A DNA stretch of 64,000 nt. It comes from Adineta ricciae. Lineage: Eukaryota > Rotifera > Eurotatoria > Adinetida > Adinetidae. The DNA lies in assembly GCA_905250025.1 (NCBI GenBank), contig CAJNOJ010000136.1, positions 128,902 to 192,901 of the forward strand, read 5' to 3'. Below the pieces are notes generated by a model that did not search any database, was not told the origin of the DNA, and saw only the letters and a program-made list of their open reading frames with translations. The position numbers and the translations under genes were made by a program. This document shows positions 16,263 to 62,236 of this stretch, in pieces (position 1 is the stretch's first letter; every line of letters begins with the position of its first letter).

Positions 16263-16851
16263 CGTCGATGCCCATAGAGGTCGAATATTTTGTACTAAGT
16301 CATTTTTGATCTAGAAGTCAAAGACAGATTCTCAGTATTCTATACAAATACATTGATTTTTGTGACATTAAATAATAAATACACAAAGCATATTAACCCA
16401 ACAAGTAAATTAAAATTCAATTGCAATCACTTGTTGTCAATATATCTTACAAATTGATATAAAAGTCTTTCATGTTATCTCCACTGTCGGTATAGTATGA
16501 TAAAAGCTGATTGAACAGAGATTACACTGAACATAGTATACAATCGACTCCGTTTATCCTTTATTTACACATGGCTTGTTGACTTCTTTTATCTTGATCT
16601 AATTCTATTGATCCAAATAGAGTGATTGCTTCGATAGAACGAAAATTATCTATAACTATCCAGAAAAGCCTATGACAATGTTGCGCCATCTATAACTGGA
16701 GTTTGGTTTTGCAGGGAATAAACGAACTAATGGACGATTTTCATTTTTCTATCCATTTGTCATAAAAGTATACTGCAGTAAAGTGTGGGTTTTTCTAAAA
16801 ATAACAAAGTGAATCTTACTGATTGTTGTCTTTCTCTTTTTTTTGCTGCAG
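16263..16851. other. Spacer upstream of AIFM3
   Basis: AT-rich, with stops in all frames. Contains probable polyadenylation signals for the preceding gene (aataataaatac around 16370) and ends with a strong pyrimidine-rich acceptor (ttttgctgcag) directly abutting the AIFM3 ATG. No other feature. Confidence 0.5.
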
Positions 16852-19166
16852 ATGTTTGTAGTATCAAAATTATTTAAACCGTATTCCAAAGGTTGTTCAT
16901 TATTTCAGTTTCAGAAATTTCATACTAGTAGAAAACATATGGAAACTATTAAATCAATTATATCGACGGTAACTGGCGGTGCTAGTGAAACGAACACATC
17001 TACAGCGTCGAACGAGCAAATTCGTCATCTATTATGTAAAACTGATGACTTACAAAACGGGCAAATGAAAGAATTCGAAGTGAAAACTTCCTTTGTCAAT
17101 ACCAGTGTACTCCTGATTAAACAGAATGACAAATTTCATGCATATTCAAGCAAATGTTGTCACTATAAACTTCCACTAGCAAAAGGTTCGACTTGAGCGC
17201 ATCTTTTTGTTCGTAACACTTATATTTGAATTCAATAGGTGTGTTGATCAACAATCGTCTTCGTTGTTTTGCACACGGTGCATGTTTTCGTGTCGACACC
17301 GGTGATATCGAAGATCATCCAGGTCATGGCAATTTACCCAGTACGTTGTTTATGATAATACTCTCTATTTGAAATTCAAATGTGTTCTGTTGAATAGAAT
17401 ATGATGTTGAGATCGTCGATGGACAAGTTATTTTGGTTGGAACTAAACAAGATCTTGAAAAATTGGAACGTTCGAAGATACCTGATAATCTTGAAATCGA
17501 CGATAAGCCAGTTGTTGCAATTATCGGAGCTGGAGCAGGTACCTGTCTAAAGGAATCTCTTCTTTCACACAAATATTCTTTTCCTAGGTGGATTTACATG
17601 TGCTGATATGCTTCGTCAAAATGGCTTTCGTGGTCGTATACTATTATACACACGCGAAGGAACATTACCATACGATCGCGTGAGTTATTGTCTTTGCTGT
17701 TTATCTGAAAAGAAACGGTAATCATTGGATTTACAGGTTCAATTATCGAAACAACCAATGAAGAAATCGCAGGACCTTCTTCTTCGCGATCAAAATCATT
17801 TCAAAAAAGCCAAAATTGATTTAATACTTGACACCGAAATAACCAATATCAATTGGGATGCGAAAACTTTAACTTACCATACAATTGGCAAACAAATGAA
17901 ATCTGAACAATACGATTATCTCGTATTGGCAACTGGTCTACGATCACGAAAATTACCATCGTCAATACGTGGAGGTGATCTTCGAAGCATTTTCTATGTA
18001 CGATCAATGGAAGATGCGAATAACTTAGTCAGTAAGTCTTACATCAACATTTGTTTGATATTGTTGATTATCGTTCTTGACTAGATAAAGTCAAGTCACC
18101 GGAGACGAAAAATATTGTGATTATTGGCGATTCGTTCATTGCATTGGAATTGTGTGGATGGCTGACAACAGGTTTAGCAGGTCCTGATGGCAAACAAACT
18201 GACATCGACAAGAAAAATGTATCGGTAGTCATGCTTTTGAAAGCCCCAATGATTCGTAAGAATAAATTCGATGAAATCTCATAAGAAGGCACGTTTTGTT
18301 TTCGAAGGTATTTTCGGCGAAAAAATCGCGCGTGCACTACAAACTGTTCATGAAAAGAATGGAGCGAAATTTTATCCAGAAGCCAATGTCACTGAAATAA
18401 CTGTAAGCGACTTCTGAGCTGGATCGATTAACAACTGTTCTCTCCACATATATAGGGTGAAAACAATAGTGTCAAATTTGTGCAATTAGAAACCGGTGAA
18501 TCCATTCCATGTGACATGGTCATTGTGGCAATCGGTAGCGAAACTTGTACTGAATTGTACAAAGATTCGCCAATTGCATTAAGTGAAGATCATTTTATCA
18601 AAGTTAATGATCGATTGGAAACATCAGTTGAACACGTTCTTGCTGTTGGTGACATTAGCAAACATCCATTGAAAGTATTCAATTTGGATGAAGTTAACTG
18701 TCAACATTGGCAAATGGCATGTTCGAGCGGTCATCAAGCTGGTAAGTCAGCATGTGTGTATGAAGAACATTCTTTCGTGATGCGTGTTTTTTCTTCAGCG
18801 GACACAATTTTACACCATTATCTTGGCCAAAACAAAGGTGGTGCACGTCCGTTAAAAACGGACTATTATACAGTTCCCATCTACTGGACAACGCAAAATA
18901 ATAAGACAACGATTCGTTATGCGGGTTATACTCGTGATCCTGAGAATGTTGTTATTCATGGCGATCTTGATGGTGAATTTAAATTCGTTGCTTATTATAT
19001 CGTCGATGGTTTTGTTCGAGCTGTTGCTCAATCTAAATACGATCCATTGTCAAGTGAAGTCGCCGAAGTATTTTATCATCGGCGAAACATTCGCAAAGAA
19101 GATATTGAAAACGATATGTACGGCTATCGAAAATACCTCGAATTCAAAACGAAAAAACCTGAATAA
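16852..19166 (+). CDS. AIFM3: AIFM3-like Rieske/FAD-NAD(P) oxidoreductase
   Basis: Start ATG 16852 lies immediately after acceptor ctgcag. The basic N-terminus (SKLFKPYSKGC...KFHTSRKHM) fits a mitochondrial presequence. A Rieske [2Fe-2S] domain follows with both ligand pairs, C-x-H (KCCHYKLPLAKG) and C-x2-H (CFAHGACF). Next come the FAD-binding motif IIGAGAGG, the NAD-binding region IVIIGDSFIALELCG, the FAD motif VLAVGDI and the C-terminal AIF/ferredoxin-reductase-type domain, ending at TAA 19166. This order is that of AIFM3/AIFL, a mitochondrial flavoprotein linked in vertebrates to apoptosis. Introns are about 50-65 bases and all exon joins keep frame. The stop overlaps an AATAAA polyadenylation signal, and the next gene starts only 123 bases downstream. 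Confidence 0.93.
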
Positions 19167-19289: not shown

Positions 19290-22200
19290 ATGAGTTCTCA
19301 AGCTGACCTCTATAAGCAGCTTCAATGCCAAAAATGTGAACGACGTTTGAACAAACCTTTAGAATTAAAATGTCAACATTACATATGTCGAGACTGTCTT
19401 GAAAGTAAAACGAGTAGATTGAGATCTAAGTGAAATTTACTGCTTTCTTTCAGCTATTCTTCGCAACCATCGTACTCAGGCGCAATGCCCAACTTGTCAT
19501 CAAGCTCTTGGAGATTATAAAATTGAAAATTATGAGTATCTTAAGCCAAAACATCCTATTTCCCGTCTTCTAGCATCTTGGAATGATGTTGATCAGTGTA
19601 CGACATGTAAAACATTTACAGTGGTTGAAGCGTGTTCTCAATGTTCGAAAGAACAATGTGATTCGTGTGCTGCACAACATGAAGAGACTCATCGTCTATC
19701 AGAAAGCCAATCTGCGAATAATTTCAACGATTTTTCTGAAGAAGAAAACAAAATTCTTGAATCGATTCGAAAAGATTTAACTGATAAAGAATACGAAGAT
19801 TTCGTTTGTACAGCCGCCGCTCATTTGAATCATGCAGTGTCGAACACGGCTGGAACAAGTTCGCCATCATCAAGAAATGAACTCAGAACAAGTGTTGAGA
19901 ATATAATCGGTTCTACAAAACCAATTTATGATTGGTCCAAACATGAAAAATTCACTGCTGATGATATCGTCAATAGTAGACCAGAACGCGTGAAGCAATT
20001 GTTACGACTAGACTTCACTCCTCGACCATATCAGATCCGAATGGTTCGAGCAGGTCTGAAACGAGAAAACTCACTTGTCTGTCTACAAACTGGTGCGGGA
20101 AAAACATTCGTAAGATATTTTATTTTCAATTGTTTGTTCCTCGAATTTTCCGTAGGTCGCTGGTATTATTGCTAAATTCTTCCACATACTTTCGCTGCAA
20201 AAACTTCAACATGCATCTGCAACATCTGAGAGTACATCACGCCGGTTCAAAGCCGTTTTTCTCGTTCCCATAAAAGCCTTAGTCGATCAACAATGTGCTG
20301 CATTTCGAAAGGTTTTCATGGATGAGCCCGACTCGATCCTACAGATGATCGACAATCAAGTTGGCGAACGGTAAACGTCGAAATCAATGCTGAATAGAAT
20401 GATGTATTCATGTTTTGATCGATTTTAGATTTGAAAGTCTCTATCGATCACACGACATATTCTTTTTTACAGTACAAAAATTTGCTAATTTTATCGATGC
20501 GAAACATGCAGACTTGAGCAAATTTGATTTGGTCATGGTCGATGGTAAGTCCAAACAGTATCTTCGAAAAGTGTTTGACCCTTTCTTCTCTTGTTATCAA
20601 GAATGTCATCACTGCTACGATAATCATCCAATCAACACTATGATGCATCAATATCATCGATTGAAACTATCGAATCGTGCCGTACCACAAATAATTGCTT
20701 TGTAAAAAAAATTAATCGATTTGTTTGTATCCGATCAATTCTCCCTTTTAGAACAGCAAGTGTTGGTACGAATAAAAAGAAGGCTTTCGATCATCTGGTT
20801 CGTCTCTGTGCTAATCTTGATTGTTACAATATTTGTGCCATTAGCAAAGGCGCTGAAGAAGATGAACTACGAAGTTCAACTAATACACCATTAGCAGATA
20901 CAATCGTTGCAGTTCCAAAAGAAGAAAACGATCCGATTGTTTTATTTCTGAAGGACAACGTGATGAAAAGCATTGCTCAACGTCTCGCACTGGATATATC
21001 AATGATGACTACCGAAAAATTAGATAATTTTCTTGTTTTAGAACATACGAGTGCTTGCAAAACGAATGATCGGGATGCTATCATTGGTTGCCATTATTTA
21101 CGAGAATTAAATGTATAGAACCGAGGAGAATATCTCTGCAGTCTTTTGCTAACTGTGGTACATGATTTTATTTAGCTTTTCATTCGCTTTTACCAAGATT
21201 TGCCTCTGGAGCAATGTACGGAAAGATTAGAACAAATCTTACAAAGTTCGTCGCCTAGTAAACCAACACCATTCGATACATTTTGTCAACAAAAACTGAA
21301 CGAATTTCGTAATCTGGCTACAAAACAGATATCATCGAAAGCTCCGGCTCAAGCGAAATTACAGAAACTGGTTGAGTTAATCGAGAGTCTGCACGCACCC
21401 AATCATCGAGGTGAGAATTTTAAATTCATTTGATCAATCGAGGAAACCACAACTGAATAGAATGAGATATACGCATACTTGTTTTAGGTTTGGTCTTAGT
21501 CCGCACTAAATTTCATACAGTAGCTTTAGAAAAATTTCTAAATCAGCATCCAAGAATAGCTCAACGTCAAATATCCGTTGGACGTCTGACTGGGCAAGGA
21601 CCAGCAGAGGACCTTTGTTTACCAGGTAGTCAGCAAGGAGCGGTTTTGGATGCATTTAGGAAGGGTAAGTTGAACTGGCGAGAAAAAGGACCAGAGAATT
21701 ACAGAAGTTTCTTCATAGGTGACAAAAAACTACTTGTTGCTACTGGTAAGCCCGTGAAAAACGCCTATTGATAAGAAATGAAGTATGTCTACGAACGTTC
21801 ATGTAGATGTGGCTCAGGAAGGATTGGATGTAGCTGAATGTTCGTATGTTATTCGATATGAATTCGTATCAAACGAAATCGGCACGGTTCAAAGTCGAGG
21901 ACGAGCTCGGGCTGCACAAAGTAAATGTTTTCTATTAACTGAAGCACGTAAGCGATTCATACAACTGTTTCAATTATCATTAATCGATTATGTTTCTCTC
22001 ATGTTATTGTAGTATCGTTGAATTATCAACGCGAACTCGATAATCGTGAGCGTGAGGATGAAATGAAACAAGCTCTGGAAGAATGGCGTAAACTGGGAAC
22101 TAGTGAATTTCGAGTGCTAGTAGATACCCAAGAAGTACCGTCTAGGCGTAGATATTTCGTTCTTTCCAAATCATATTCGTTGATTTTAGAAAGAAATAAT

Positions 22201-22633
22201 CAGGGAACTATGTAAGAGCGATGGTTTACCAACAGTATCAAATGATTTGGAAAATAGTCAACCTAGTGCGAAAGAAATTCGTTGTCGGTTTTGTGATAAA
22301 TTATTATGCAAAGGATCAAGTTTACGACGTCAAGGTACTACCGTTGTATGTAAAGACCCAGCATTCGAACGATTAGTCAATCCACCGAAGACGACTGGAG
22401 GTAATCATCGAGTACTCATTTTTTTTGCTGAAGTTAATTCTTTTCTTGTAGCGAAATTTCTCTGCCCAAATCCAACCTGTCAGCGGGAGCTAGGTGGGGT
22501 CATTTTATTATCACGAAATGAACCAGCATATGCATTACAAATCACATCATTGAAATTTGTTATGAACTCGGTGGAAGAACCACGTCTTTTTAAAAAATGG
22601 AGTTTATATCAAGGTTACATAGAACAACTATAA
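19290..22633 (+). CDS. RIG-I-like receptor helicase with N-terminal RING and B-box-like zinc fingers
   Basis: About 900 residues in a dozen exons; ATG directly follows acceptor cattttag. N-terminus: a RING-HC finger (CQKC...LKCQHYICRDC...CPTC, residues 13-53), then a second cysteine/histidine module (CTTC...CSQC...CDSCAAQHEETH, about 87-118) resembling a B-box. Helicase: PRPYQ (Q motif), LQTGAGKT (Walker A, about 249-256), DECHHC (motif II, codon split across an intron at about 20543), LTASVG (motif III), ATDVAQEGLDV (split by an intron near 21745) and QSRGRARA (motif VI). C-terminus: a RIG-I-type RNA-end-binding domain with zinc ligands CRFC and CPNPTC, ending in LFKKWSLYQGYIEQL. DECH box, QSRGRARA and this CTD place it in the RLR family (RIG-I/MDA5/LGP2), not Dicer. 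There are no CARDs. Predicted cytosolic dsRNA/5'-end RNA sensor with built-in E3 ligase potential. Confidence 0.92.
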
Positions 22634-24113: not shown

Positions 24114-27100
24114 ATGTGGTCATCACAAGGAAATACCGATTACAGTTCGACTGGTAAATACATACTTGACTTGCCCACAATGTTTTTGAATCTATATTTC
24201 GTTGTATAGAGCGATCCGCTCATTCGGTTTCACAGCCAATCAATATGCCAAATCGACCATTAGATATGACTGCCGGTTATATTGACCCACACAGTGCGGT
24301 GTTTTCGCCCAAATCCACAGATCCAACAAATCTCGGTGTTAATATGTGTATGAATATATTGGACGGTGACAATTCACCACGTGTAAAAGATAATACTGTT
24401 AAAGATGTTTCACAACGTTTACAGAACATGAAAATATTTGTAAGTATCATTTTGAAAGTTTTCACTGATTTGCGAAGATCAATTTTCGATTGTCTATTTT
24501 TTATTTCAGACTGACAGTGATAATGATAAAAAACCACATGATAATTCAAATGAATATCATGCCGATGATGGTAAATCCGTTGAAACAGTAGGCGATAATG
24601 CTTTACCAAATACAAGTCGTAAACAATCACCACGAGCATCACCTGGTCATATTCATAATGACTTACCAAATGGTAATACCAATGAAAATCTTGCTACCAA
24701 TGATCCTATAGGCCCTCACAATGATATTAATGATAGTGGCTTACCATCAGTACATTCGGTAATGAATGGTATGCCGACAGCATCTGTACCGATTCCTTTC
24801 CAACGAATGCAAACAAATGATGCTCAACAACAAATGTTACTTTACCAACAACAACAACAGCAACAACAAGCGTAAGCAAATCTTTGAAAATATTTCTTCC
24901 AGGAGAAAACACTAGTCATTTTGATTTAGTTATCAAGCACAACAGTATCAAATGCTACAACATCAAGCTACTCATTATGAAATGGATCCACGTACTACAA
25001 ACTTTCAATCATTCGACTATACAATAATTCAGCCACAATCGTAAGTGTAGCTTCAGTTCTAATTCATAAGATTTTTATTTTATTTTAAGATATGAAAGTC
25101 AATCAATCATATCTGCCTTCAACCCACAAGCACCAGGTACGAATCAACAAGATCCGCAACTAGCTAATCTTGCTCAAGGCCCACTCATGCCTTGGCTACA
25201 AACTACAGTCGCTGCATCTCAACAATCTGGTAATCAACAGCCACCATATGGTTCATCGTCTAATCAATACATACTTAACAACAATCAAGACAATTATTTA
25301 CAAACATTAGCAAATTTTCATCAATCACCAGCTACACATCCATCATTTCAACCGCAGTATTGGTCCGCAGTACCTCCTGCTCTAGTGTTCCCAGCTCCAC
25401 CACAAGCAATGTTAGCACAACAACAAACACTAAATAACGAACCACAATCCCCACAATCCAAAGCAAATAATGCGAATAATCGACCTTTGACACCGTCGAA
25501 TTCAAATGATTTATTGAGTACATCACAACCAAATCAACCACCATTTCTAAGCATGCCGCGTGCTGCACAAACACCAGGTACGAAACATACGAATGAGTTC
25601 CTTTTCTCGGCTTATATAAATCATGTTCTTCTTTCTTATTAGTGAACTTTCCATTCTATGCAGCTGCATCGCCAACATTTCTCGATCCAAATCTAATGAT
25701 GCAATCATCTCGAGCACCCAATGGTTCACCTGGTATTCGCATGTATCAACAACAAGTACCAATTCCAAGTATTTGATTTCTAGAGGAAACTTCTCAATAT
25801 TCATGATCTATCTCTTCTTGTAGTCAATACAAATAATCAAGGTGGTCTTTATGGAAGTCCAGTAGCAGGAAGTTCGCTTTCAAGTTCATTCAATGGTAAG
25901 TCAACAGTAGAATCTTACTGATCCGAGATATGAAATGAAACTGAGGAGTTCAATTGATTTATTGAGAGAAAGAAGTAGGCGTCTTTTCTTGTGACTTTAT
26001 TACAATGGAGATTTGTCATTTCATAACATGCTTGTCGGATTTAATTGGATGCGGTTGTCAATGATTTGTTATTATAAAACGCGCTGTTTGTTTTACTCTT
26101 TCCATTCTGCGGACATTTTTAGCAGGTTGTTTTCGTTGCGATATTAATCGAGAGAAACAGATGAACAAATTAGACAGTATCTCTTCAATTAAAATGATTC
26201 TACTTCATAGATGCATACACTGTTCCAAATCAGCGACGTGATGGTTCCATAGTTGATTTCTCTCGATTTCCAGGTGATCCTCGTTTATCTAAACAAGGTC
26301 AACAGCAGCAACAAACGCCAATGTTTCATGGCCAAATTAGTGGTCTACCACCATCACCTGCTTATAACAATCTAATACCATCAATGACTCCCCCGCCGAC
26401 TTCCAATAACGCAACATTCGATGGTATCTTCAATACTCGATTCTTTCCTTCGAATGCTCCATCTACTGGTGGATCTCAACAACAAATCCTCAATGGTAAC
26501 GAAATGTACGCTGGACGTCGTAGTGTCGGCAGCATCAGTGGAACAATGCCAAGTTTCTATCCTCCAAATGTATTCGGTGGTAATGGAAACAATGTTAATA
26601 ATATGCCAGGAAATGGCAATGCGCGTGATGCCAATATCAATCGAAGTAAATTATTGGATGACTTTCGCAATAGTCGAATGCCGAATTTACAATTACGTGA
26701 CGTTATTGGTCATTTTACTGAATTCTCCATGGATCAACATGGCTCGAGATTTATACAGCAAAAACTAGAACGTGCAACTAATGGTGAAAAAGATATGGTG
26801 TTCAAAGAAATTCTTCCTAATTCATCTCAATTGATGACTGACGTCTTCGGCAATTACGTTATTCAGGTGAGAGAAAGGTTACCAATCGAATGACTCTCAT
26901 TTTTCTTTTCTTTTTCTTCAGAAATTTTTCGAATTCGGTACAACGGAACATAAGGGTCTTTTAGCTCACCGCATTCGCGGAAATGTTTTAACACTTGCAT
27001 TACAAATGTATGGTTGTCGCGTAATTCAAAAAGCCGTCGAGACCTTACCTAACGAATTTCAGTTACAAATAGCACGAGAGTTAGAAGGCAATGTTGTTAA

Positions 27101-28946
27101 ATGTATTGAAGATCAAAATGGTAATCATGTTATCCAAAAATGTATTGAATGTTGCTCGGCTGATAGCATCGAATTCATTATCCGGGACGTGACAAGACAA
27201 GTTTTTTCACTCTCTGCACATCCATATGGCTGTCGGGTAATTCAGCGTATATTGGAAAATTGTAATGAATTTCAAACACGACCTATACTGGATACTTTAT
27301 ACAATGAATTAGACAATCTTGTTCAAGATCAATATGGTAAATCTCAATGTTGCAAAAATACTTTATTGTGTTTTCTTTGTTTTAAGGAAATTATGTTATT
27401 CAACATGTGTTAGAACACGGTAAACCCGAAGATCGTGGCCGAATTATTAGTGCTATAACCGGTCGTGTGTTGCAGTTGTCTCAACATAAATTTGCCAGGT
27501 AAGAAGCATGATGAATGAATGTAAACTAATTACTCTATTGTTCATTTTCATTTTTTTAGTAATGTGGTGGAAAAATGTGTAACATTCGCTACGAGGGATG
27601 AGAAAAGACAATTGATCGATGAAATTATCACATCGGGCGACGGGTAATGATGATGATTTGATGTTACTTAGAATAAGACGATACGAATTTCTTTCGTTCT
27701 AGACCAAATTGTGCATTGTTAACAATGATGAAAGATCAGTTTGCTAATTATGTTGTGCAAAAAGTAAGTTGTTTCTTTGCAATTGATTCGAGATACATGC
27801 ATACCCGATATTCATAAGTAGTAGAAAGAAACGGTTAGAAATTAAGCTTTTCTAAGCTATCTCTAACTATTTTTATACTAACCGTATCGAATGACTCGAT
27901 TCGGATATGCCAAATAATACCAGTTACTTGAAAGTAGTCCGCTGAGAGAGTCTCTGATCAATTAGATATCTTCATATACATTCCGATGACTTTGAAAATA
28001 CAAGCCTTGTATAGATCACGCGAGTTAAATTGCTTAGTTGTTCTTATTGCCGTTCTCAAAATTTCCTAGCTAATGCATCACGTCTTTATTCTCTTCCGAA
28101 CCGCCCACTCAAGATTGCGGCGTCGCCTATGATCTAATCACATATGCAAGCGAAAAAAAAAACAAAGTCTCAGCTATATAAACTAGAATCGCGAGTTCTA
28201 TAAAGTGCACAAACAACAGTAGATGTACTCTTCTTTTCGAAAAGGAAATCTTTCATCGTGAGTTTAACTTTCTTTCTGTCAAACCCTTGATTTTTGTATA
28301 GTCTATGAAGCTAAAGAACAAAGTCTCTTCGCTGTATTATTTCCAGTCATTTACTTGTTAACTTTACATGCTATATAGCTATTTATATCATCAAAAATGA
28401 AATATGACGAGCGAACATTCAGTTCAATATATATATGTGACAATAGGAATTGCTTATATTATTCGCAGTCATTCAGTTTTTTATATTAAAATACATTAAC
28501 AAAAAAACTTGACATCAAAGATGCTTTGTTTCGGAATGATCTTTCTTAACTTCCTACGCATTGCCATCATTAAATATCCTCTCACGAATCTTTTCATAGA
28601 CAATAGCAGCTTTTTCTATTATACTTTGTGTATATGCAATCTCAAAAGAATTCTATTGAAAAAATCTTTTTTTACATCATCTTCTTCCTCTGATCTTGTA
28701 TTTTGCTTAATTAATAATCCAACAACCAAGTACACTTTTCTTTGTTCGAACTAGATGATCGATGTTGCCGAACCAGCTCAACGAAAAATTCTCTTACAAA
28801 AAGTTCGACCACATATTCAATCGCTTCGCAAGTTTACCTATGGCAAACACATAATCACTAAACTTGAAAAATATCTCAGTAAAACTGCAGACATGCCTGC
28901 AATGTCCTCATCAAATTCAAACGGTTTACCACATTATGACAATTAA
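24114..28946 (+). CDS. PUM: Pumilio RNA-binding translational repressor
   Basis: Long protein with a low-complexity Gln/Asn/Pro/Ser-rich N-terminal half (polyQ near 24845-24870) and a C-terminal Pumilio homology domain from about 26640. Eight PUF repeats are visible with base-reading residues: [64 protein letters not shown]. This series (SR-Q, NY-Q, CR-Q, NH-Q, CR-Q, NY-Q, SN-E, NY-Q) equals that of animal PUM1/2, so the predicted target is the standard 5'-UGUANAUA element. The domain closes with [16 protein letters not shown] and stop 28946. It binds 3' UTRs in the cytoplasm and recruits deadenylation. Start [13 protein letters not shown] is the first in-frame ATG; more 5' exons are possible. 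One intron (27764-28754) is far longer than the rest. Confidence 0.95.
27764..28754 (+). other. 991-base intron inside the Pumilio RNA-binding domain
   Basis: Runs from GTAAGT after FANYVVQK to AG before [11 protein letters not shown]. Neighbouring introns are 50-320 bases. It has no coding exon I can recognise. It includes a TATA-like element (tatataaac near 28190) and the 8-mer TTGTATAG twice (about 28012 and 28298). It may contain an old insertion or a regulatory element. Confidence 0.7.
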
Positions 28947-41141: not shown

Positions 41142-41923
41142 TGATGTTTTGTCGTTGTTGTTATTGTTGTTACTGAGATTGGTAAGAAAACTGTATCGAC
41201 GATGTTAATCATTCCATTGTGAGGAAGATCTGGAATAAGAATGAAAATATTTTAAGTGAAACTCGATTGTGTATCATAAATGGTTTTGATTTTGATTTCT
41301 TTATTCATGTAGCTGCCCTCGTTCTCGTTCCGTCCGCAATTCTTTCCATTTTTTATCATCTTTGTTGAATATTAATTCTTATTCGTTAGTAAACTGACGG
41401 TTTGAATAGCAATTGTCAACAGATGTCGCCACAAAAACTAATGTCATGTTTCTTGGAAAGGTTCCGTCAAATTTGTAACACAAATGTACGAACGAAACGT
41501 GAAAATGTTTTTTTTGCCGTTTTTGAGTTAAAGAGAAGTCTGAATATATTTCGTAATCATATTGCAATAGTGGCGAGATGATAAAGCTTTATTTCTCATA
41601 AGATATCGAGAGTAAAGGAAGTATTTGAAAACTGATGAGAAGTATTGCTTTAACCTTCCATCGTCTTACCTCTAAGGCAATGCAAATATAACTATACTTG
41701 TAAATAGCAATTCTTCTACCGTTCGAAATATCATTTTGACTGTTCACATTCTTGTTGACACACATGGGAGGCAGTACATCTATCCCGAATTCAATCAGTA
41801 CTAATTCTGAACAATGCTCGAAACTTGTTTCAGACACCCAATTACCCGTATGTAATCAATGGCTTTTAGCCAGCTGCACTCGATAGCGACTTGCATAAGT
41901 ACAAAAATTTATTCTTTTAGATT
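41142..41923. other. Divergent spacer between RSF1 and the MBL-fold gene
   Basis: Holds the RSF1 5' leader (CAA-rich, 41142-41190) and ends in acceptor attcttttag, 3 bases before the MBL-fold ATG. A minus-strand open frame at 41589-41837 shows no family resemblance; it could be a relic but is unsupported. Confidence 0.45.
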
Positions 41924-42712
41924 ATGTCAGGACTTTCATCATACGATGTGATTTGTCTGGGTGTTGGTAAAGGTGCTACAGCTGTCTATTTCGATCAAAC
42001 GAGTAGTTCATTTGCTCTTGTACGTCGTTCGACTGGAGAATGTATTCTTCTCATTGATATGGGTCTTGGTTCAATTTTTGCTCTTCAAAAATACATAAAA
42101 GATTTTCAAATTAAACCACGGCAAATATTCATTTCGCACAATCATACTGATCACAGTGGAGAGTTACCTGTATACATTGCAAATGAAGCTTTGAAATCTC
42201 TTGTCCGAATCGTTTGTTACGTTGGCATCCAATCTCGTCTTCGCCACCAGAGATGTGCTGAACTTGATTCGTCGACAACGGATCTGTTCCATAACGTTCA
42301 ATGGATTACTTGTGACGAATCGCAAGATGTTGATTTAGACTCTGGAGATCCGAATTCAAAATTGAAAATACGTGTTCACCAAAGTCAACACAGTGAACTA
42401 TGCGCTGGTTTCGTCTTGTATGAGAATAACCAAGCGATTCTTAGTTTCTCTGGTGATTCAGGATTCAATGTGCCGTTTTACACATTTCTTTGGACCGCAC
42501 CAACGATTTTAGTCGACGGCCGGCAAACGACTACTTATGAACATGCAAGTTTTGATGAAATCTTAAACTTTCATAAAGCCAAAAGCATTCCACGGCAAGT
42601 TCTTGTGTATCACTACGGTCTTGAAAGTGACAAACCAAAGTTTCCTGATGGTACCATCTCAGCTATATCACCAGGTCAAACTGTACAGTTAACATTGCCG
42701 TCAGACATTTAA
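41924..42712 (+). CDS. Intronless metallo-beta-lactamase-fold hydrolase
   Basis: Single-exon gene of 262 residues. The metal-binding signature H-x-H-x-D-H appears as ISHNHTDHSGELPVYIA, the next ligand segment as HQSQHSELCAGFVL, and the downstream aspartate as LSFSGDSGFNVPF; a late histidine lies in LVYHYGLES. It resembles small RNase Z/MBL-type hydrolases of bacteria and fungi more than typical animal MBL proteins. It has no targeting signal. Lack of introns among intron-rich neighbours suggests horizontal acquisition or retroposition, but it has an acceptor (cttttag) 3 bases before the ATG, so it is integrated in host mRNA processing. Substrate unknown. Confidence 0.85.
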   Translation: MSGLSSYDVICLGVGKGATAVYFDQTSSSFALVRRSTGECILLIDMGLGSIFALQKYIKDFQIKPRQIFISHNHTDHSGELPVYIANEALKSLVRIVCYVGIQSRLRHQRCAELDSSTTDLFHNVQWITCDESQDVDLDSGDPNSKLKIRVHQSQHSELCAGFVLYENNQAILSFSGDSGFNVPFYTFLWTAPTILVDGRQTTTYEHASFDEILNFHKAKSIPRQVLVYHYGLESDKPKFPDGTISAISPGQTVQLTLPSDI

Positions 42713-42879: not shown

Positions 42880-44864
42880 TTATTTTCCATCATGTGGGTT
42901 TAAATGTCCTTCCTCATCACGCCAAATCCCATCCAGATCAACTTTACCATATTGATGCGTTGATTGATTCGTGTATAGGGCGTCCATCCAGTCCTTGACT
43001 ATCTGCGCCGAATCGATCATTGTATTGATTTCCTAAATGAGTGCAAAATAGTCAAATTCTTAAGCTGAGAAAATAATATCGTTTTCTGATATATTTACTT
43101 GAGAATGAAACCAGGACTGACTATCCATATTTCCATTTCCCATAATGGCAACTTGTCCATCGATCGCCATGAATTTGATGTGACAATTTCGTTTCTTTTG
43201 CGAAAAATTCAATGGTCGTGTTTGATCTAAATACAACTATCTACATGAAATCTCATTCGAACCGATTTCTAATCCAAACCTTTTCCTGTGTACCAGTAAA
43301 CTTCGAGGAATTTTTCTTTTCCAGCATATTCCCTTCGCAATTTTTTGTAGAGTTTCTTTATCACGTGTTCATTTGTACCACCTTGAAAAGTTCCATGTCC
43401 TTCCTTCAAATCATTAAAGCCTAAATCGAGCCACACAATTACTTGAACACCTCGTTGACACGCTTCGAAAATGCCTTCAATAGCTGGTTTGGCGTTTAAT
43501 GTTGGCGACTGAATGAAGATCAACTTTTCTGCGTAACGCATTGCTCCTAACCATGCTCCATCCTGTGGATTGGCTACATCTAAATGGCCAGGTGCACCAT
43601 GCGGCAACCGATTGACTAAAGCAATGGGAAATGGCTGATGTGGCTTATGAAATATAAATGGTGTGAAGTCATTTGCGAGTTTATCCAATTCCTGCTTAGT
43701 TAGATTTTCATCTGGCTCTGTTTTAGATGCAGATTTAGCAGCCAGATTTAAATGCTTTGTCAATGGTGATTCCGCCGATGGTAAGGCTAGTAAAGGTTCG
43801 TTGAAATAGATTTCAGTCTGTTCAATATCTAAATGATTTCGCAATCTTAGACGTGCGCGAGCAATAGCATGCTCTAGTGGTTCTTTAAATGGAACGATAT
43901 CGGGGTATTTCGTACCAAATTGAAACTGGTAATTATTTGCTAATGGTTCGTCGTTAAGACAAACAAGATTGGGCTGAAATGGTAACCACCATGATATGAG
44001 AAATGTGTCATAGAATGAATTGACAATATCTCCTTCATAATGGGCCATCATTTCAAGATTGGGTCGGTCTTGAATATTGTTACTGTTCAATAAAGCGATT
44101 CGACGATCGACAACCATAAATTTCGAATGAAATGTGCCCATAATCAAACGATGATAATTATTAACTTCCAGCGACACATTAGGAATTTCATCCGGTGTAG
44201 GAATATCAAAATGTGACCATTTATGCGGCGGAAGGATACTATGAAAATGTGCGACGTTTTCTTTCATAGGATGGTCAATCATTAATTTGAAGATAACCAC
44301 ACGATTTTCTTGTTGTGCACGTTGGCTTAAATCGCGTAATGCTTTACCAATAATGCTTACACTGTGACCTTTTTCCCAATAGTTCGTTGCTAACAAGACT
44401 TCTCTTTTAGCATTAACAATGCAATGATAATAATGCTGCATAATGTCAGGTATGGTAGAAACGATCGTCAATGGAATTACACCCGATGAACCAATCAAAG
44501 ATGGTGAACATCGACCACTTAACGGATCACGTTGAAGTGTAGATAAGACATTATGAAATAGTTTGAGAAAGAGAGTACTTGGACGGTAAGGAAATCGGCC
44601 AAAGTCAGCAGCGAAATCAAGTTCAGCTTCGGTGATATTATGTGTCGAAAATTCATAGTTGATTCGAGCTCGTAAGAAAGGTGCTGGTTTTGAAAATAGG
44701 ATTTCTGCCGCGTATTTTGGACTATCAATTATTGAAGATTTTTCAGCCAGTAATGATGTCACAGTTTGTGTTCTGTGCGCGTCTATTGGTGGTAAGTCTT
44801 CCATAGCGCCAAGCGCGTGCGCAGGTATCGCAAGAGCAATTGAATTGGGCGTCGGATAAAACAT
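42880..44864 (-). CDS. Phospholipase D-superfamily protein with two HKD motifs
   Basis: About 620 residues; a 1.59-kb first exon plus two small 3' exons (joins near 43276/43230 and 43103/43034). Two PLD catalytic motifs are present: HSKFMVVDRRIALLNSNN and HIKFMAIDGQVAIMGNGN, each with H-x-K-x4-D, so the enzyme should be active. Surrounding sequence (NNIQDRPNLEMMAHYEGDIV, FYDTFLISWWLPF) resembles the fungal PLD-like/cardiolipin-synthase-type group rather than animal PLD1/2, since no PX or PH domain is visible. No clear signal peptide or membrane span. Single large exon and family type point to possible acquisition from fungi. It converges on the MBL-fold gene with only 167 bases between stops. 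Confidence 0.88.
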
Positions 44865-45260
44865 GATTTATTTATAAAAGATGATTTTTTGCCGTTCTGC
44901 AAGGACGACGAAGACTAGTTTGATTACGAAAAATAAGACATCGTGCACATTGTATCTGAAACAAAACGCGAGCAATGTGATATGTCATTTGTTTATGTTG
45001 AATACTGATAAGAAGATGAATGAAACATCCAACAGAAAAAGAAAACAAAATAAGATGAGTGTGATCACAAGTATTAATGTATGATGTAATCAATGGTCAT
45101 CGAAAAGAGCTTATTTAGGTTGAGTGCGTAGTTTATTTTTTACAAGAACAATTCTTTATTTTTATTAACAATTTCATTGATAAATATTCAAATTATCATA
45201 GAGAATGAATGATCAAAGCGTGAATATGAAATAAGTTGCCTACATAAAACTACTCGTGCT
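44865..45260. other. Spacer between PLD-like gene and MalQ
   Basis: AT-rich 5' flank of the PLD gene and 3' UTR of MalQ (AATAAA on the minus strand near 45160). No coding or repeat feature is seen. Confidence 0.5.
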
Positions 45261-47669: not shown

Positions 47670-48449
47670 TTATTTAAACCAGATTCGAGCTATCCATTGA
47701 TGAACTTTAAGTAGATGTGATCCTTCTCCATCTTTCTTCGTATCTATCGTCGAGCCTTCGGCAAATTCAATTCGAATATCTTTCACATCACTGAATTCAA
47801 ATGTCTCTTTGCCTAGTTGACCAATATCTTCCTGTATTTGCTGTTTCGAAGTTAATTCTCGTTCGAGTAAATACCGGATTCTTTGTATACTATGATCAGT
47901 CTTGTTAATATCTTGTTTGTTACAAAAGATTAGCAATGGCAAATGCTGATCTCGAAAATATCTTTCACGAATAATATGATAAAGATAATCGGAGACATAT
48001 TTAAGATCTTTTTCAATAGTGGTACTATCGATAACAAATATAATAGCTTTTGCAGATGTTTTATAAACAAGAAAGTCGTATTGATAATGTCGAGTGTTAC
48101 TTGGAATTTCAATAACATGCACTTTTTCAATAGGACGATCTGACGAAAGATAATCGAGTTTCATTGTACCATGATTAACGGACATGGCGTAAAACGGTCG
48201 TTTTTCTAAATTCGATGTCAGACGGTTGAAGAGTAGCGTCTTTCCGGATTTGGCAATTCCACACAGAAGAAGACATTTGCCATGATGTGCGAAGCGCTGT
48301 TGACGACGTCTAATCCACCAAAGAACAATGATCGTTAATAGTAAAGTAAGTATTGAAAGAAGAATTGTACGTCGAAACGTCTGAGAAATTGGATCGATGA
48401 AAGGTTTGTCGATATGTTCGTCGAAGGATGTTGGTTGATGAGTATTCAT
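47670..48449 (-). CDS. SRPRB: Signal recognition particle receptor subunit beta
   Basis: Single-exon frame. N-terminal transmembrane anchor (RRTILLSILTLLLTIIVLWW), then a Ras-like GTPase: P-loop GIAKSGKTLLFNRL, later AKAIIFVIDSTT, and the guanine-specificity motif LLIFCNKQD. C-terminus ends HQWIARIWFK. The length (259 residues) and membrane-anchored layout match SR-beta, which tethers the SRP receptor to the ER membrane. The switch II segment, usually D-x-P-G, reads IEIPSNTRHY, so the invariant Asp and Gly are replaced. I chose MNTHQPTS at 48449 as start because an acceptor (catttctag) lies 2 bases before it. The frame is also open to an ATG at 48503, giving an 18-residue longer alternative. 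Confidence 0.87.
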   Translation of the reverse strand: MNTHQPTSFDEHIDKPFIDPISQTFRRTILLSILTLLLTIIVLWWIRRRQQRFAHHGKCLLLCGIAKSGKTLLFNRLTSNLEKRPFYAMSVNHGTMKLDYLSSDRPIEKVHVIEIPSNTRHYQYDFLVYKTSAKAIIFVIDSTTIEKDLKYVSDYLYHIIRERYFRDQHLPLLIFCNKQDINKTDHSIQRIRYLLERELTSKQQIQEDIGQLGKETFEFSDVKDIRIEFAEGSTIDTKKDGEGSHLLKVHQWIARIWFK

Positions 48450-48865
48450 ATCTAGAAATGAATATGAACCTTTGAGTGAGATGAACAGCTTCGCTTCGCT
48501 CATGCGCAGTGTCGCTAGTTTACAGAAATGAACATGTTGTTTCCTTTAACTAGATGGAGTTCTTATTTGAATGAACGTCGTCCATGTTTTATAGCGCAGA
48601 CAAATCACATGCAGCAATTCCTTTATTTGAATAAACAATGTTCACTGCAGGAAAAAAATTCATTTTCATGCGTAGTTTCGGAAACGTCGTAGATTCGAAT
48701 TGTAGAGAGAAAATTTTCATTTAGCGCTAGGTGTCAGATTAACAGCGTTTGCATCGAATCAAACAAAGAATCGGTGACAGAAAAGAAAATAATAAACAAT
48801 GAAGAGATTTTCCTTTCACATCACTGTCTTTATCTTTAGATTGAATATCTTTTATTAAATCGAGA
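48450..48865. other. Divergent promoter region between SRPRB and LSM14
   Basis: Short head-to-head spacer that must serve both genes. AT-rich; no defined promoter motif can be supported from sequence alone. Confidence 0.4.
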
Positions 48866-53739: not shown

Positions 53740-54809
53740 CTATTTAGGTTGTTGATTTCGAGGTTTTTTAAGAATATTTCCTTCACCCGTAAATGGCTGA
53801 AATGTATTCGAACTAGCTCTGTCTCCGGTCGTCGACGTTTCTTCATTCATTGAACGTAGTGGTGTGCGTATAAATTGTATTGTGCCATACTCATAATTAT
53901 AATTAGGCACGCCACGTGCTTGTTGTACGGCAGGATTATTTTGTTGTTGTTGTTGTTCCTGATCTTTCGATCGTGTTTTTCCATTCAAACGATTACCTTG
54001 TCCATGGAATGGTAAAAATGTCGATGGACTTTTATAACTATTTGGAATCGATGATAGAGGATCTCCGGGAGTCGCTGCCATCGAGTTTGTCGTCTTAGGT
54101 GTTGTAGCAATGTTTTGTGATGTTGTTGGTGTGTATTTAGGCTCGACATAACCGACAGGTGGAGCGAAATCAACTTCCATATCACATTCAATGATTGAAA
54201 CAGCATCAGCTGGTTTCAATTCCAAAACGCATAATTCATAATTTCGATTGAGATAATTAATTGCTATGATATCACCTTTGGTTAAACAATTGAAATTTCT
54301 CAAAGTTTTCTCTAAAACAGCTTTAGGATTGGATATATCGAGGAAATCTTGCGACTGAGGTTGAAAACGTGCAAATTTTGCTGTTGGTAAATTGACAGAT
54401 TCGACACTGACTTCATCACCTTCTTGCAATATTAAATGACGCATCATCCAGTTAGGTAGATAACACGTGTTATTTTCATTTTGATGAAATTCTAAAACAC
54501 CGCAATGAATAATACGATCGAGTTTTTTGTTTCTTAATTTGAATAACATTACACCAGACTAGAAGGACAACGTAATAGAAGGATAGATAAGCATTTTTCA
54601 ATGTGATTTACTTGTTCTACTAGTTGTTCGAGAGCTGCCTGAGGAAGAAGAATTTTACCGCCATTTTCAACGTTAAGACGTTCGCGATCGCGATCCGGTA
54701 AGAATGCCGCCGAATAACAAACATAATCAGCTCGAAAGGGACCAGCATTCATACCCATATCATGACCACCACCTCCAAAATTTTGTCGAAAGAATGGACT
54801 AAAAAACAT
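53740..54809 (-). CDS. UFD1: UFD1 (ubiquitin fusion degradation protein 1)
   Basis: Two exons joined near 54613/54558 (EQLVEQ|SGVMLFKLRNK). Starts MFFSPFFRQNFGGGG; the double-psi-barrel/UFD1 domain includes GGKILLPQAALEQL, GVLEFHQNENNTCYLPNWMM, SVNLPTAKFARFQPQS and NYELCVLELKPADAVSIIEC. A low-complexity C-terminal tail (polyQ near 53940) contains FLPFHGQGNRLNG and TFQPFTGEGNILKK, resembling the p97- and NPL4-binding SHP-type boxes F-x-G-x-G. UFD1 partners NPL4 and the p97/VCP ATPase to extract ubiquitinated substrates, for example in ERAD. About 338 residues, normal for the family. A longer frame to 54839 exists, but the family start is the internal Met chosen. Confidence 0.94.
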
Positions 54810-59668: not shown

Positions 59669-62236
59669 ATGTCAGCGGACCTATTTACATTATCATGGTT
59701 CATTGTATTTATTCTGGTCATATCCATTGCATTTATTGCCAATATGATCATCATCATTGCCATCCTGCGAGACAAATCCATGCATACATCAACATATTTC
59801 TACATTATCAATGTCAATATAGCTGATCTTATTCTGGTGGTGAGTTGCTTGCCAGAGCGCGTAGCTGGGGTCTTCGGATCAAACGACGGATTTCAATTGG
59901 GAATGTTGACATGTAAGTGCATTTCTTATACATTCAGTTCAGTAGATATTGGAACTGGAGAAACTGGTTTTGTCGAGACTGGAGAATAGAGAGAAATCAA
60001 TTAGATAAAAATGGAAATTCTCTATGAATAAAATATAATGCTGTCGTGTATAAAATATCATGTTTTGTACCTTGTATTCTTTTGATTGACGTACAATAGG
60101 AGCAACAGTGACGTATATACGATGAAAAAAAAGAAATCAAAAGATCTTGTTTGACGTCGTCATTTCTTAAGACATTGATTACAATGGATAAGAATAAAAA
60201 TTTTGTTTGAAACAAAAGAATTCATTCTGATCAAGGTATAAGAATATGAGTATATTTAATTGATAGTCAGAAAGAACTAGAAAAGAAGGAAAAACCGTTT
60301 TTTTTCCCGTCATATATAATGAAATTAGTTTCCGATATGATCGTGTTGTTTATCCGTATCGGAGAGAAAATAGCAAATAGCAATTGAGAATCATCGGTGA
60401 AATAATCTGTCGCGTTTATAAGAAGTTTAATAGATGATTGATCTATATTTGAGTATCGAAACTAAGCAATCGAATTTTATCTCTCGTGAAATCAAATTTA
60501 TCCTAATCTTTCTGCTATTTCACTCGCGAGAAATCCCAACATGATAATTATACGATCATTTTCTTGAAAAGGGCAAGAGAAAGTTCATGCTAAACAACAG
60601 AACCTGGCTTGAAGGTGATACTTAGTTATTACAACACGTTTTCATCAAGTAATAGATATTCTATGTCAAATGTCTCTATCAACTCTCGCCCGATAATTAA
60701 TATATACATGAAATGATCATACCATCTCACCGTATAATCCCTTCCCTATTAGAATTACTAATGAATACACATGAGTTGTTATTTAATTAATATAAATTAT
60801 CAAATTAATAATATCTTGACTTCAATAAACCGAATGACGTGTGAAATAGTGAAGGAAACTATCGTGTTATTTTTATTCGATGACCTTAATGGTTTCATTT
60901 TCCAATAGGTTACTTACTCCCATTTTTTCAACAAGTTTCAATGCACGCTGCATTTGTTTTCTTGCTTGTTCTATCCATTCATCGCTGTTATCCTGCTGGT
61001 GTGCCGCGATTTCTTCAAGGAAATCTCATTCGTCGACAAATACGAAATTATCCGCGAACACTATGTATTCTTTGGACTTTTGCTGTCATTATTAATCTAC
61101 CCTTGTTTGCGATAACCAAATACGAAACATTCAGCATGAATATAACGATTTCCATTGGAAATGACCTCAATGTCACTAAAATAGTCAATCATAATTCCTG
61201 TTTTACAGCAGCGGAAGAAATCTGGTCACGTACTTATTTAAGTTTATTACTCATTTGTACTTATGTCATAACAGGCATCTTTCTTATTGCTATCTATGGT
61301 CAAGCCATACGGATAATTCTTGCTTCAAAAAAGTATTCGAAACCATCGTTACGAACAACAGTAAATAGCAATGATCATTATCGTTTTCTTTCACCGAATA
61401 ATACTCCGGACAGTGAATGTCAATCAAATTTGTGTCTTCGCACAAATGGACGAGGAAATCTTGAAGTCCTAGCAGGAAATTCGATGTCATCATTAACAAC
61501 AATAGCTTCAGCTCGACATTATCAACAGAAACTTTTACATGCATCAATAACACCGCTAGTTATTACAAAATCTAATGAACATAACGATCATCTCAATCAT
61601 TCATTAACGAATTCTCATTCCACTCAACATCTGCAAGTTATTGTCATGTTATTCATTGTGATTCTTTTGTATATTCTTCTTCTTTTACCTTATCGTCTAT
61701 TTAATTTGCTATACATTGTTTACAATGACATCTTTCAGAAAACTACCATCAATGAAACGATGTTCCAATGGTTAATCAATACTGTTCGTCTACTTGTTTT
61801 TCTTAACTGTGCTTTACAACCAATAACTTATTTGATTATCTCCTCACGTTTACGACAAACCGTCGGTAAACTTCTTCGTTCATGGTATTGTCATTGCCAT
61901 TGTTCATCATCGGTATCATTAACAAATGGGAATGAACGTTACAAAAACGATATACGTGCGGTGCAAGCATATTCTTCTCACAAATATCGCGGTCGAACGC
62001 CGTATGAAGATCAGCAGAGACAAAATATTCATCATGCGGTTCGCCCATTTCAAACTTCATTGTATAACACTCAGTTGATGGGTTCACAATTGAATCAGTT
62101 GACTTTATCGCGTTCGCAATCACCAGCTGGTGTATCGCAAATAACTTTGTCACGCTCGCCATCACCGATTGGTTTGACACATTTGACAAACAAGACTCGA
62201 TATATTGTGTCATTCACAAATGACTCTCGAAAGTAA
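59669..62236 (+). CDS. Atypical class A (rhodopsin-like) GPCR
   Basis: Two exons (59669-59912 and 60909-62236; 523 residues). TM1 SWFIVFILVISIAFIANM with the conserved Asn, TM2 NVNIADLILVVSCLP with the conserved Asp, TM3 AAFVFLLVLSIHRCYP, TM6 IVILLYILLLLPYRLFNLLY, TM7 LLVFLNCALQPITYLIISS. The DRY motif is replaced by HRC (Arg kept) and NPxxY by QPITY; TM6 lacks the CWxP Trp. A long third intracellular loop and a Ser/Pro-rich tail (SRSQSPAG, SRSPSPIG) follow. The LPYR segment in TM6 is reminiscent of TRH-receptor-type peptide receptors, but I would not assign a ligand. The 996-base intron falls at the start of TM3, right after the cysteine expected to pair with extracellular loop 2. Confidence 0.88.
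59913..60908 (+). other. 996-base intron in the GPCR gene
   Basis: GTAAGTG donor after codon start ACA T; acceptor ttccaatag before GTTACTTACTC; the join restores T-C-Y-L-L-P in TM3. Much longer than the typical 50-65-base introns here. Contents are AT-rich, with no recognisable exon or transposon ends. Confidence 0.75.

What the first reader, a model, noticed from the sequence alone, without database searches (positions are those of the whole stretch)
19290..22633. RIG-I-like receptor fused to an N-terminal RING plus B-box-like module instead of CARDs
The sequence shows an uninterrupted gene with RING-HC (CQKC...CQHYICRDC...CPTC), a second Cys/His module, a full DECH helicase (QTGAGKT, DECH, QSRGRARA) and a RIG-I-type C-terminal zinc domain (CRFC...CPNPTC). 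In vertebrates, RIG-I signalling needs separate RING E3 proteins (TRIM25, RIPLET) that ubiquitinate it. Here sensor and E3 module lie in one chain, suggesting a self-ubiquitinating, CARD-independent RNA sensor. I do not know this architecture from characterised animals.
Basis: partly seen in the sequence, partly recalled or inferred. Interest (0 to 1): 0.88.

Follow-up and report, generated by a model that had tools for sequence, protein, structure and literature searches.

The report
RNA-virus sensor fused to RING finger
In bdelloid rotifers, one relative of the human virus-RNA sensors RIG-I and MDA5 carries a RING zinc finger, the hallmark of ubiquitin ligases, where those human sensors have signalling CARD domains, although the RING lacks the residue that usually grips the ubiquitin-loading enzyme.

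Summary
The gene is real. Positions 19290-22633 splice into 13 exons (12 introns of 46-77 bp) coding 885 residues: a C3HC4 RING, a second C6H2 zinc module, and a complete RIG-I-like receptor (RLR) core with helicase, Hel2i insert and C-terminal zinc domain. One open exon carries the last RING cysteines, the second module and helicase motif I, so a false join of two genes is very unlikely. Seven full-length counterparts exist in Adineta, Rotaria and Didymodactylos; 15 of 16 zinc ligands are invariant in 8 of 8. The helicase groups with RLRs, nearest to two other RLR loci of the same genome, one with a DED before it, one with no recognised N-terminal domain. The genome gave no CARD match. The survey read describes DED, IG, SAM, caspase, Death or CARD N-termini on lophotrochozoan RLRs, not RING. 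Autonomous self-ubiquitination is therefore doubtful; an RNA-clustered RING that needs a partner or an unusual E2 fits better. New variant of a known kind.

The parts
19290..22633 (+). whole coding region of the RING-RLR gene, 13 exons, 885 aa plus stop
   Evidence: gene model; TAG directly before the ATG in frame; collinear with 7 proteins of 882-893 aa
19290..19404 (+). exon 1: first six zinc ligands of the RING (C13 C16 C28 H30 C33 C36)
19454..20109 (+). exon 2, one open frame: last RING cysteines CPTC, second Cys/His module, linker, start of the helicase with motif I QTGAGKT
19326..19497 (+). RING C3HC4, residues 13-53 (intron 19405-19453 inside)
   Evidence: PF00097 E 5.1e-5 over cut-off; all 8 ligands invariant in 8 of 8
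19597..19692 (+). C6H2 second zinc module, B-box-1-like spacing, residues 87-118
   Evidence: 7 of 8 ligands invariant, the eighth (H118) in 7 of 8; profile match to the same module of four other RING proteins of the genome; no Pfam B-box hit
20014..22119 (+). RLR helicase (Hel1, Hel2i, Hel2, pincer), residues 226-750, exons 2-11
22283..22630 (+). RIG-I-type C-terminal zinc domain, residues 787-885; CRFC at 22283, CPNPTC at 22463-22480
   Evidence: 27.5 bits, cut-off 25.6, unspliced frame; the matching four cysteines and a Trp invariant in 14 of 14 RLRs and in the window protein

Best explanation
This is a cytosolic double-stranded-RNA sensor of the RLR family that has a RING plus a second zinc module in place of a CARD/DED signalling part. 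SHOWN by sequence: architecture, conservation in three bdelloid genera, and RLR membership of helicase and CTD. INFERRED: the helicase-CTD binds dsRNA and hydrolyses ATP; several molecules on one RNA bring the N-terminal RINGs together; the clustered RINGs nucleate ubiquitin signalling. Because the E2-contact residue is Lys/Ser, the RING most likely works as the non-E2-binding half of a RING pair (as BARD1 with BRCA1, or Bmi1 with RING1B) or through an unusual E2, rather than as a free-standing ligase.
For: Gene model and one-exon fusion. RING over Pfam cut-off; zf-C3HC4 matched in 8 of 8 bdelloid proteins at E up to 10, best 4.4e-6. Seven full-length homologues; 15 of 16 zinc ligands invariant, identity to the window protein RING 50-71%, module 53-65% (29% for Didymodactylos), linker 30-50%. 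Unbroken profile match over helicase and CTD to MDA5 (E 3.3e-72); fold match to MDA5, RIG-I, LGP2 and DRH-1. Trees place it with RLRs, apart from Dicers. RIG-I_C-RD over cut-off. No CARD or CARD_2 match in the genome, while the same method found 57 DED matches. E2-contact anomaly in 8 of 8 against 2 of 58. Precedent for E2-blind RINGs that pair with active ones: PMC6487577, passages.
Against: No cDNA, no biochemistry. No dimerisation element recognised; the model's N-terminus is poor (pLDDT under 50 at 82-101 and 103-131). No partner RING identified. The eight RINGs are one lineage, so the anomaly may be one evolutionary event. In Didymodactylos the second module is no better conserved (29%) than the linker (30%), apart from its ligands. 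The RING could have lost ubiquitin function altogether.
Confidence: 0.5

Rival explanations
1. A free-standing RNA-activated RING ubiquitin ligase that ubiquitinates itself: RNA binding dimerises the RING, which recruits an E2 directly.
For: Complete C3HC4 ligand set and the CP.C turn, CS.C in one of eight. RNF135/Riplet, a RIG-I ligase (role recalled), is among the RINGs matched (E 0.0018). I26A BRCA1 keeps residual activity with a subset of E2s (PMC9910797, passage).
Against: Position before the second Cys is K (7) or S (1) in 8 of 8, against 56 of 58 hydrophobic in other RINGs sampled here. Linchpin H,K,N,T,N,N,S,Q. An Arg put into the E2 interface lowered the activity of TRIM25 and TRIM32 (PMC6487577, passages); by recalled numbering that position is the one after the second Cys, which is Glu in 7 of 8 here and Leu in Didymodactylos.
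Confidence: 0.22
2. A Dicer partner of the C. elegans DRH-1 kind that works in RNA interference; the RING is a protein-protein module.
For: A DRH-1 structure is the top single-sequence PDB match (8t5s, E 2.1e-51); DRH-1 works with Dicer (title and start of abstract of PMC11095941).
Against: With a profile the best matches become MDA5, so the DRH-1 match is not specific. The trees do not join it to the nematode DRH-like row, which has a long branch.
Confidence: 0.18
3. A negative regulator: an LGP2-like competitor of the DED-type RLRs whose RING targets them or itself for turnover.
For: Other RLRs, one with a DED before it and one without a recognised N-terminal domain, exist in the same genome.
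Against: No evidence of interaction; same E2 problem.
Confidence: 0.07
4. Annotation artefact: a RING gene and an RLR gene lie next to each other and are not one transcript.
For: No cDNA in hand.
Against: Exon 2 alone codes CPTC, module 2 and QTGAGKT; seven public gene models in three genera show the same fusion.
Confidence: 0.03

Closest known systems
Vertebrate RLRs: RIG-I, MDA5, LGP2
   Same: SF2 helicase with Hel2i, pincer and C-x2-C...C-x4-C zinc domain; unbroken profile match over the whole core to MDA5
   Different: RING + zinc module at the N-terminus instead of the tandem CARDs of RIG-I and MDA5; 23-26% identity in the 50 fold alignments shown
C. elegans DRH-1
   Same: RLR core, top single-sequence PDB match
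   Different: DRH-1 is reported to signal via CARDs (titles of PMC11260149 and PMC10871272, listing; papers not read)
Lophotrochozoan RLRs with grafted N-termini (PMC8998645)
   Same: RLR core carrying a non-CARD N-terminal domain; a DED lies before an RLR helicase in the window's own genome too
   Different: N-terminal domains named in the parts read: Death, CARD, IG, DED, SAM, CASc; 'RING' and 'rotifer' do not occur in its main text. The domains of its single-species 'X' types are in a figure that I could not see
RIPLET/RNF135, TRIM25, TRIM65
   Same: RING proteins that act with RLRs in vertebrates (recalled); TRIM65 PSpry solved with MDA5 (7jl0)
   Different: There the RING is in a separate chain; here it is covalent
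TRIM28, BARD1, Bmi1
   Same: RINGs reported without E2 binding (PMC6487577, passages)
   Different: None is an RNA helicase (recalled); the resemblance is in the lost E2 contact only

Membership tests
RIG-I-like receptor | SF2 helicase motifs I, II (DECH), III, VI | tested here: met
RIG-I-like receptor | Hel2i insertion and pincer between and after the RecA lobes | tested here: met
   unbroken profile match 226-880 to MDA5; fold alignment over 704 columns to MDA5 chain 9lov_B, TM 0.79 by target and 0.62 by query length
RIG-I-like receptor | C-terminal RNA-recognition zinc domain (PF11648) | tested here: met
   27.5 bits over cut-off as an unspliced frame; four Cys and a Trp invariant in 14 of 14; weak in whole-protein scans, 1 of 8 at E 0.0026
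RIG-I-like receptor | closer to RLRs than to Dicers | tested here: met
   100/100 split from 4 fungal/plant Dicer rows; the tool warns of long branches
RIG-I-like receptor | dsRNA binding and RNA-stimulated ATPase | not testable with these tools
   needs biochemistry
CARD-type RLR (RIG-I/MDA5 class) | N-terminal CARDs | tested here: not met
   no CARD in the protein; no CARD or CARD_2 match in the genome at E up to 0.1
RING E3 ligase | eight zinc ligands with C3HC4 spacing | tested here: met
RING E3 ligase | hydrophobic E2-contact residue before the second Cys | tested here: not met
   K/S in 8 of 8; role from PMC13061254 and PMC9910797, passages
RING E3 ligase | Arg/Lys linchpin after the last Cys | tested here: inconclusive
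   K in 1 of 8, other residues in 7; the rule is not absolute
RING E3 ligase | ubiquitin transfer | not testable with these tools
   needs an assay
TRIM family | B-box after the RING | tested here: inconclusive
   C6H2 spacing fits B-box 1 (spacing recalled); no Pfam hit; the module of 2 of 4 kin scores weakly as B-box, E 0.02 and 0.056, below cut-off
TRIM family | long coiled coil after the B-box | tested here: inconclusive
   only short helices 134-144 and 149-167 in a low-confidence part of the model; no coiled-coil program was run
Dicer | RNase III, PAZ or dsRBD domains | tested here: not met
   none in the Pfam scans of the window and A. vaga proteins

The most novel reading that the evidence does not exclude
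Bdelloid rotifers have an RLR branch that signals without any death-fold domain: dsRNA binding clusters a covalently attached, E2-blind RING that licenses a partner RING, so that sensor and ubiquitin scaffold are one molecule in an animal whose genome shows no CARD domain.
Probability: 0.3. Interest if true: 0.8.

Novelty: new variant of a known kind. Interest (0 to 1): 0.6.

Why it matters
RLR signalling in vertebrates depends on separate RING proteins that modify the sensor (recalled). A lineage in which a RING is built into the sensor, kept in three genera with invariant zinc ligands, offers a natural test of whether ubiquitin scaffolding can replace CARD-MAVS signalling. The same genome holds an RLR with a DED before it and one with no recognised N-terminal domain, so N-terminal swapping on one RLR core can be studied in one animal. 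Surveys that start from the Pfam RIG-I C-terminal model (PMC8998645 did so, with TBLASTN besides) could overlook such genes: whole-protein scans list that domain in 1 of 8.

Tried and rejected
Separate-gene artefact: rejected, see exon 2. Dicer fragment: rejected by domain scans and trees. TRIM membership: not claimed (B-box and coiled coil inconclusive). Pfam B-box search of the genome: 57 matches, none at the window, a result against calling module 2 a B-box outright. AlphaFold model: useful for the core, useless for module 2; a fold search of module 2 alone was not tried.

Reach of the protein searches: one search scored only the 7,997 candidates that share most words, one search scored 6,434, and candidates must share exact 5-residue words with the query. 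That RING-RLRs exist only in bdelloids is therefore not shown. Search with the N-terminal 225 residues alone (388 candidates): 6 proteins up to E 10, all bdelloid RING-RLRs; not even the Didymodactylos one came back, so the empty result outside bdelloids is weak.

Kin of the N-terminus in the own genome: C400, C126, C11 and C29 match through or beside the second module. A further match, C33 (residues 23-89), showed a RING but no such module in the frames I read, and was dropped. Among the four kin the E2-contact residue is Y, L, N and V, so kin are mixed.

RING control: 60 of the 149 matches listed, picked by hand along the list; 2 hits lacked the first Cys and were dropped, leaving 58. The eight best (L001-L008) were not sampled; one search scored 150 of 392 candidates, so 149 is not the full number; several sampled RINGs are near-copies of each other.

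Trees: 20 rows and 19 rows of 27 proteins found, with domains outside helicase and CTD cut off; the second left out P0002, P0005 and P0009 and added two roughly joined genes.

Ten literature searches: none of the rows shown is a paper on a RING-RLR fusion or on bdelloid RLRs by title or start of abstract. Several lists were capped (20 of 36, 20 of 102, 20 of 21,756, 10 of 83, 12 of 197, 8 of 92), searches were aimed at RING-E2 contacts and DEDs, and only open-licence papers are held.

Full report
THE GENE. The stretch 19290-22633 is coding DNA cut by small introns. Joining 13 exons at 12 introns of 46-77 bp, all GT...AG, gives 885 residues with no stop inside. The fourth intron (20545-20601) splits DECH. 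A TAG lies directly before the ATG in frame. Exon 2 (19454-20109) lies in one open frame of 250 codons that holds the last two RING cysteines, the second zinc module and helicase motif I, so the RING and helicase parts cannot easily belong to different genes.

HOMOLOGUES. In a collection of 5.8 billion proteins the protein finds seven counterparts over its whole length: Adineta vaga 72% identity, A. steineri, Rotaria sordida, R. socialis, two further Rotaria species, and Didymodactylos carnosus 47%; the next hits are LGP2 proteins at 28% over 65-67% of the length. A profile of the eight finds the same seven and then abalone RIG-I-like proteins. The bdelloid proteins have 882-893 residues. In the eight, all eight RING ligands and seven of eight ligands of the second module are invariant, and the eighth is kept in seven. 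Identity to the window protein is 54-76% in the helicase, 43-78% in the CTD, 50-71% in the RING, 53-65% in the second module (29% for Didymodactylos), 30-50% in the linker before the helicase and 17-47% in that before the CTD. The RING is therefore under constraint, and so are at least the ligands of the second module.

THE CORE IS AN RLR. Pfam gives DEAD/ResIII and Helicase_C. A single-sequence search of solved structures ranks DRH-1, MDA5, RIG-I and LGP2 first, and a profile aligns without a break to MDA5 from the helicase through the CTD. An AlphaFold model of the A. vaga protein (mean pLDDT 73, pTM 0.60) matches MDA5, RIG-I, LGP2 and DRH-1 over about 700 columns. The C-terminal open frame passes the RIG-I_C-RD cut-off, though whole-protein scans match that model in only 1 of 8 members (E 0.0026). 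In an alignment of 14 RLRs, seven bdelloid and seven other, the four CTD cysteines and a tryptophan are invariant. Trees with four Dicers as outgroup put the bdelloid proteins with RLRs at 100/100; the join of the other RLRs among themselves is weaker (81/90), and several rows have long branches.

OTHER RLRs OF THE GENOME. Among 28 matches in the own genome, those above 54% identity to the A. vaga helicase and CTD lie at the window gene alone; further RLR helicases lie at C107 and C210. C107 has a RIG-I_C-RD domain (E 5.9e-14) and no recognised N-terminal domain in the open frames seen; at C210 a DED (PF01335, E 2.8e-11) lies in the frame just before an RLR helicase, and a second RLR-like stretch upstream is preceded by two more DED exons. 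That DED and helicase are spliced together is inferred from adjacency. In a tree the RING-RLRs and the C107/C210 genes form one group (100/99; the exon joins of C107/C210 are rough). So on one rotifer RLR branch the N-terminus is variously RING, DED or none recognised. No match to CARD or CARD_2 at E up to 0.1 was found in the genome (3 and 1 candidates scored), while the same method found 57 DED matches, 13 over the cut-off, one of these only with its neighbours. The CARD result is limited by introns and divergence, and there was no CARD positive control from an animal.

SOURCE OF THE GRAFT. Searching the own genome with the A. vaga protein also returned RING loci that match through the second module (C126, C11, C29) or in two neighbouring exons (C400), and one that matches in the RING only as far as I could see (C33), E 2.5e-4 to 0.008. 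The second modules of the four share the pattern C-x2-C-x8-C-x2-C-x4-C-x2-C-x3-H with the RLRs, with x10 in C11 and Asp for the last ligand in C126. A profile comparison of RING plus module gives 98.9% probability, the module alone 93.8% (one-pair comparison; the kin were chosen for likeness, and the RLR module profile kept 7 of 8 rows). Two of the four kin score weakly as B-box. C400 has the best RING match (44% over residues 8-54). Hence the N-terminus looks like a RING + zinc module unit present elsewhere in this genome, a TRIM-like pair.

IS THE RING A LIGASE? A published compilation of human ligases states that the hydrophobic residue before the second cysteine is important for E2 binding and that a linchpin, most often Arg or Lys, follows the eighth ligand (PMC13061254, passage); in BRCA1 these are I26 and K65 (PMC9910797, passages). 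Here the first position is Lys in seven and Ser in one, the second H,K,N,T,N,N,S,Q. As control I read 60 of the 149 RING matches listed, taken along the list: of 58 with the position in the hit, 56 are I, V, L or F; the exceptions are A and Y, the Y being the kin locus C400. TRIM28 shows that a RING can be without detectable E2 binding, and its authors suggest pairing with an active RING, as for BARD1 and Bmi1 (PMC6487577, passages). So the RING is kept as a fold, but direct ligase activity is doubtful. The eight sequences are one lineage and may count as one event; some sampled control RINGs are near-copies.

PRIOR ART. A survey of 58 animal genomes describes lophotrochozoan RLRs with Death, CARD, IG, DED, SAM and CASc N-termini, found by screening with the Pfam CTD model and by TBLASTN (PMC8998645: outline, passages, first part of the results, methods 4.2). 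'RING' and 'rotifer' do not occur in its main text; its figures and supplements were not seen. Other papers were seen as passages: PMC6487577, PMC5702613, PMC9910797, PMC13061254, PMC11251625. Ten searches of an open-licence library showed no RING-RLR fusion and no bdelloid RLR study in the rows listed. Domain grafting on RLRs is thus known; this graft is not known to me.

VERDICT. Architecture: very well supported. Function: dsRNA sensing by family resemblance; output through RNA-clustered RINGs is inference. The claim of self-ubiquitination should be held back until tested.

Noticed in passing
G000 genome-wide: 57 DED-domain matches (13 over the Pfam cut-off) but no CARD or CARD_2 match in the genome at E up to 0.1: death-fold signalling of this rotifer may be DED-based.
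   Followed up: partly
L085 and L078 (G000 C210, minus strand): A tandem of two RLR-like genes: one with a DED before an intact motif I, the other preceded by two DED exons, with altered motif I (AGGKKT) and motif VI (LQGRLRAH), possibly a helicase-dead RLR.
   Followed up: partly
L077 (G000 C107:53000-60000): Another RLR with a clear RIG-I_C-RD domain (E 5.9e-14) and no recognised N-terminal domain in the frames seen.
   Followed up: partly
L079 (G000 C400:37415-37949): RING + module 2 gene with the best match to the RLR's RING; it has Tyr at the E2-contact position.
   Followed up: partly
window 16813-19166: Rieske domain and pyridine-nucleotide oxidoreductase frames on the same strand, like AIFM3 (name recalled), ending 123 bp before the RLR start.
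   Followed up: no
window 26871-27410: Pumilio-family (PUF) repeats in a frame downstream of the RLR.
   Followed up: no
window 53743-54558, minus strand: UFD1 (ubiquitin fusion degradation protein) N-terminal domains.
   Followed up: no
window 41921-42709; 43272-44867; 47673-48545; 60890-62233: Beta-lactamase-fold protein, PLD-like protein, signal recognition particle receptor beta, and rhodopsin-type receptor.
   Followed up: no
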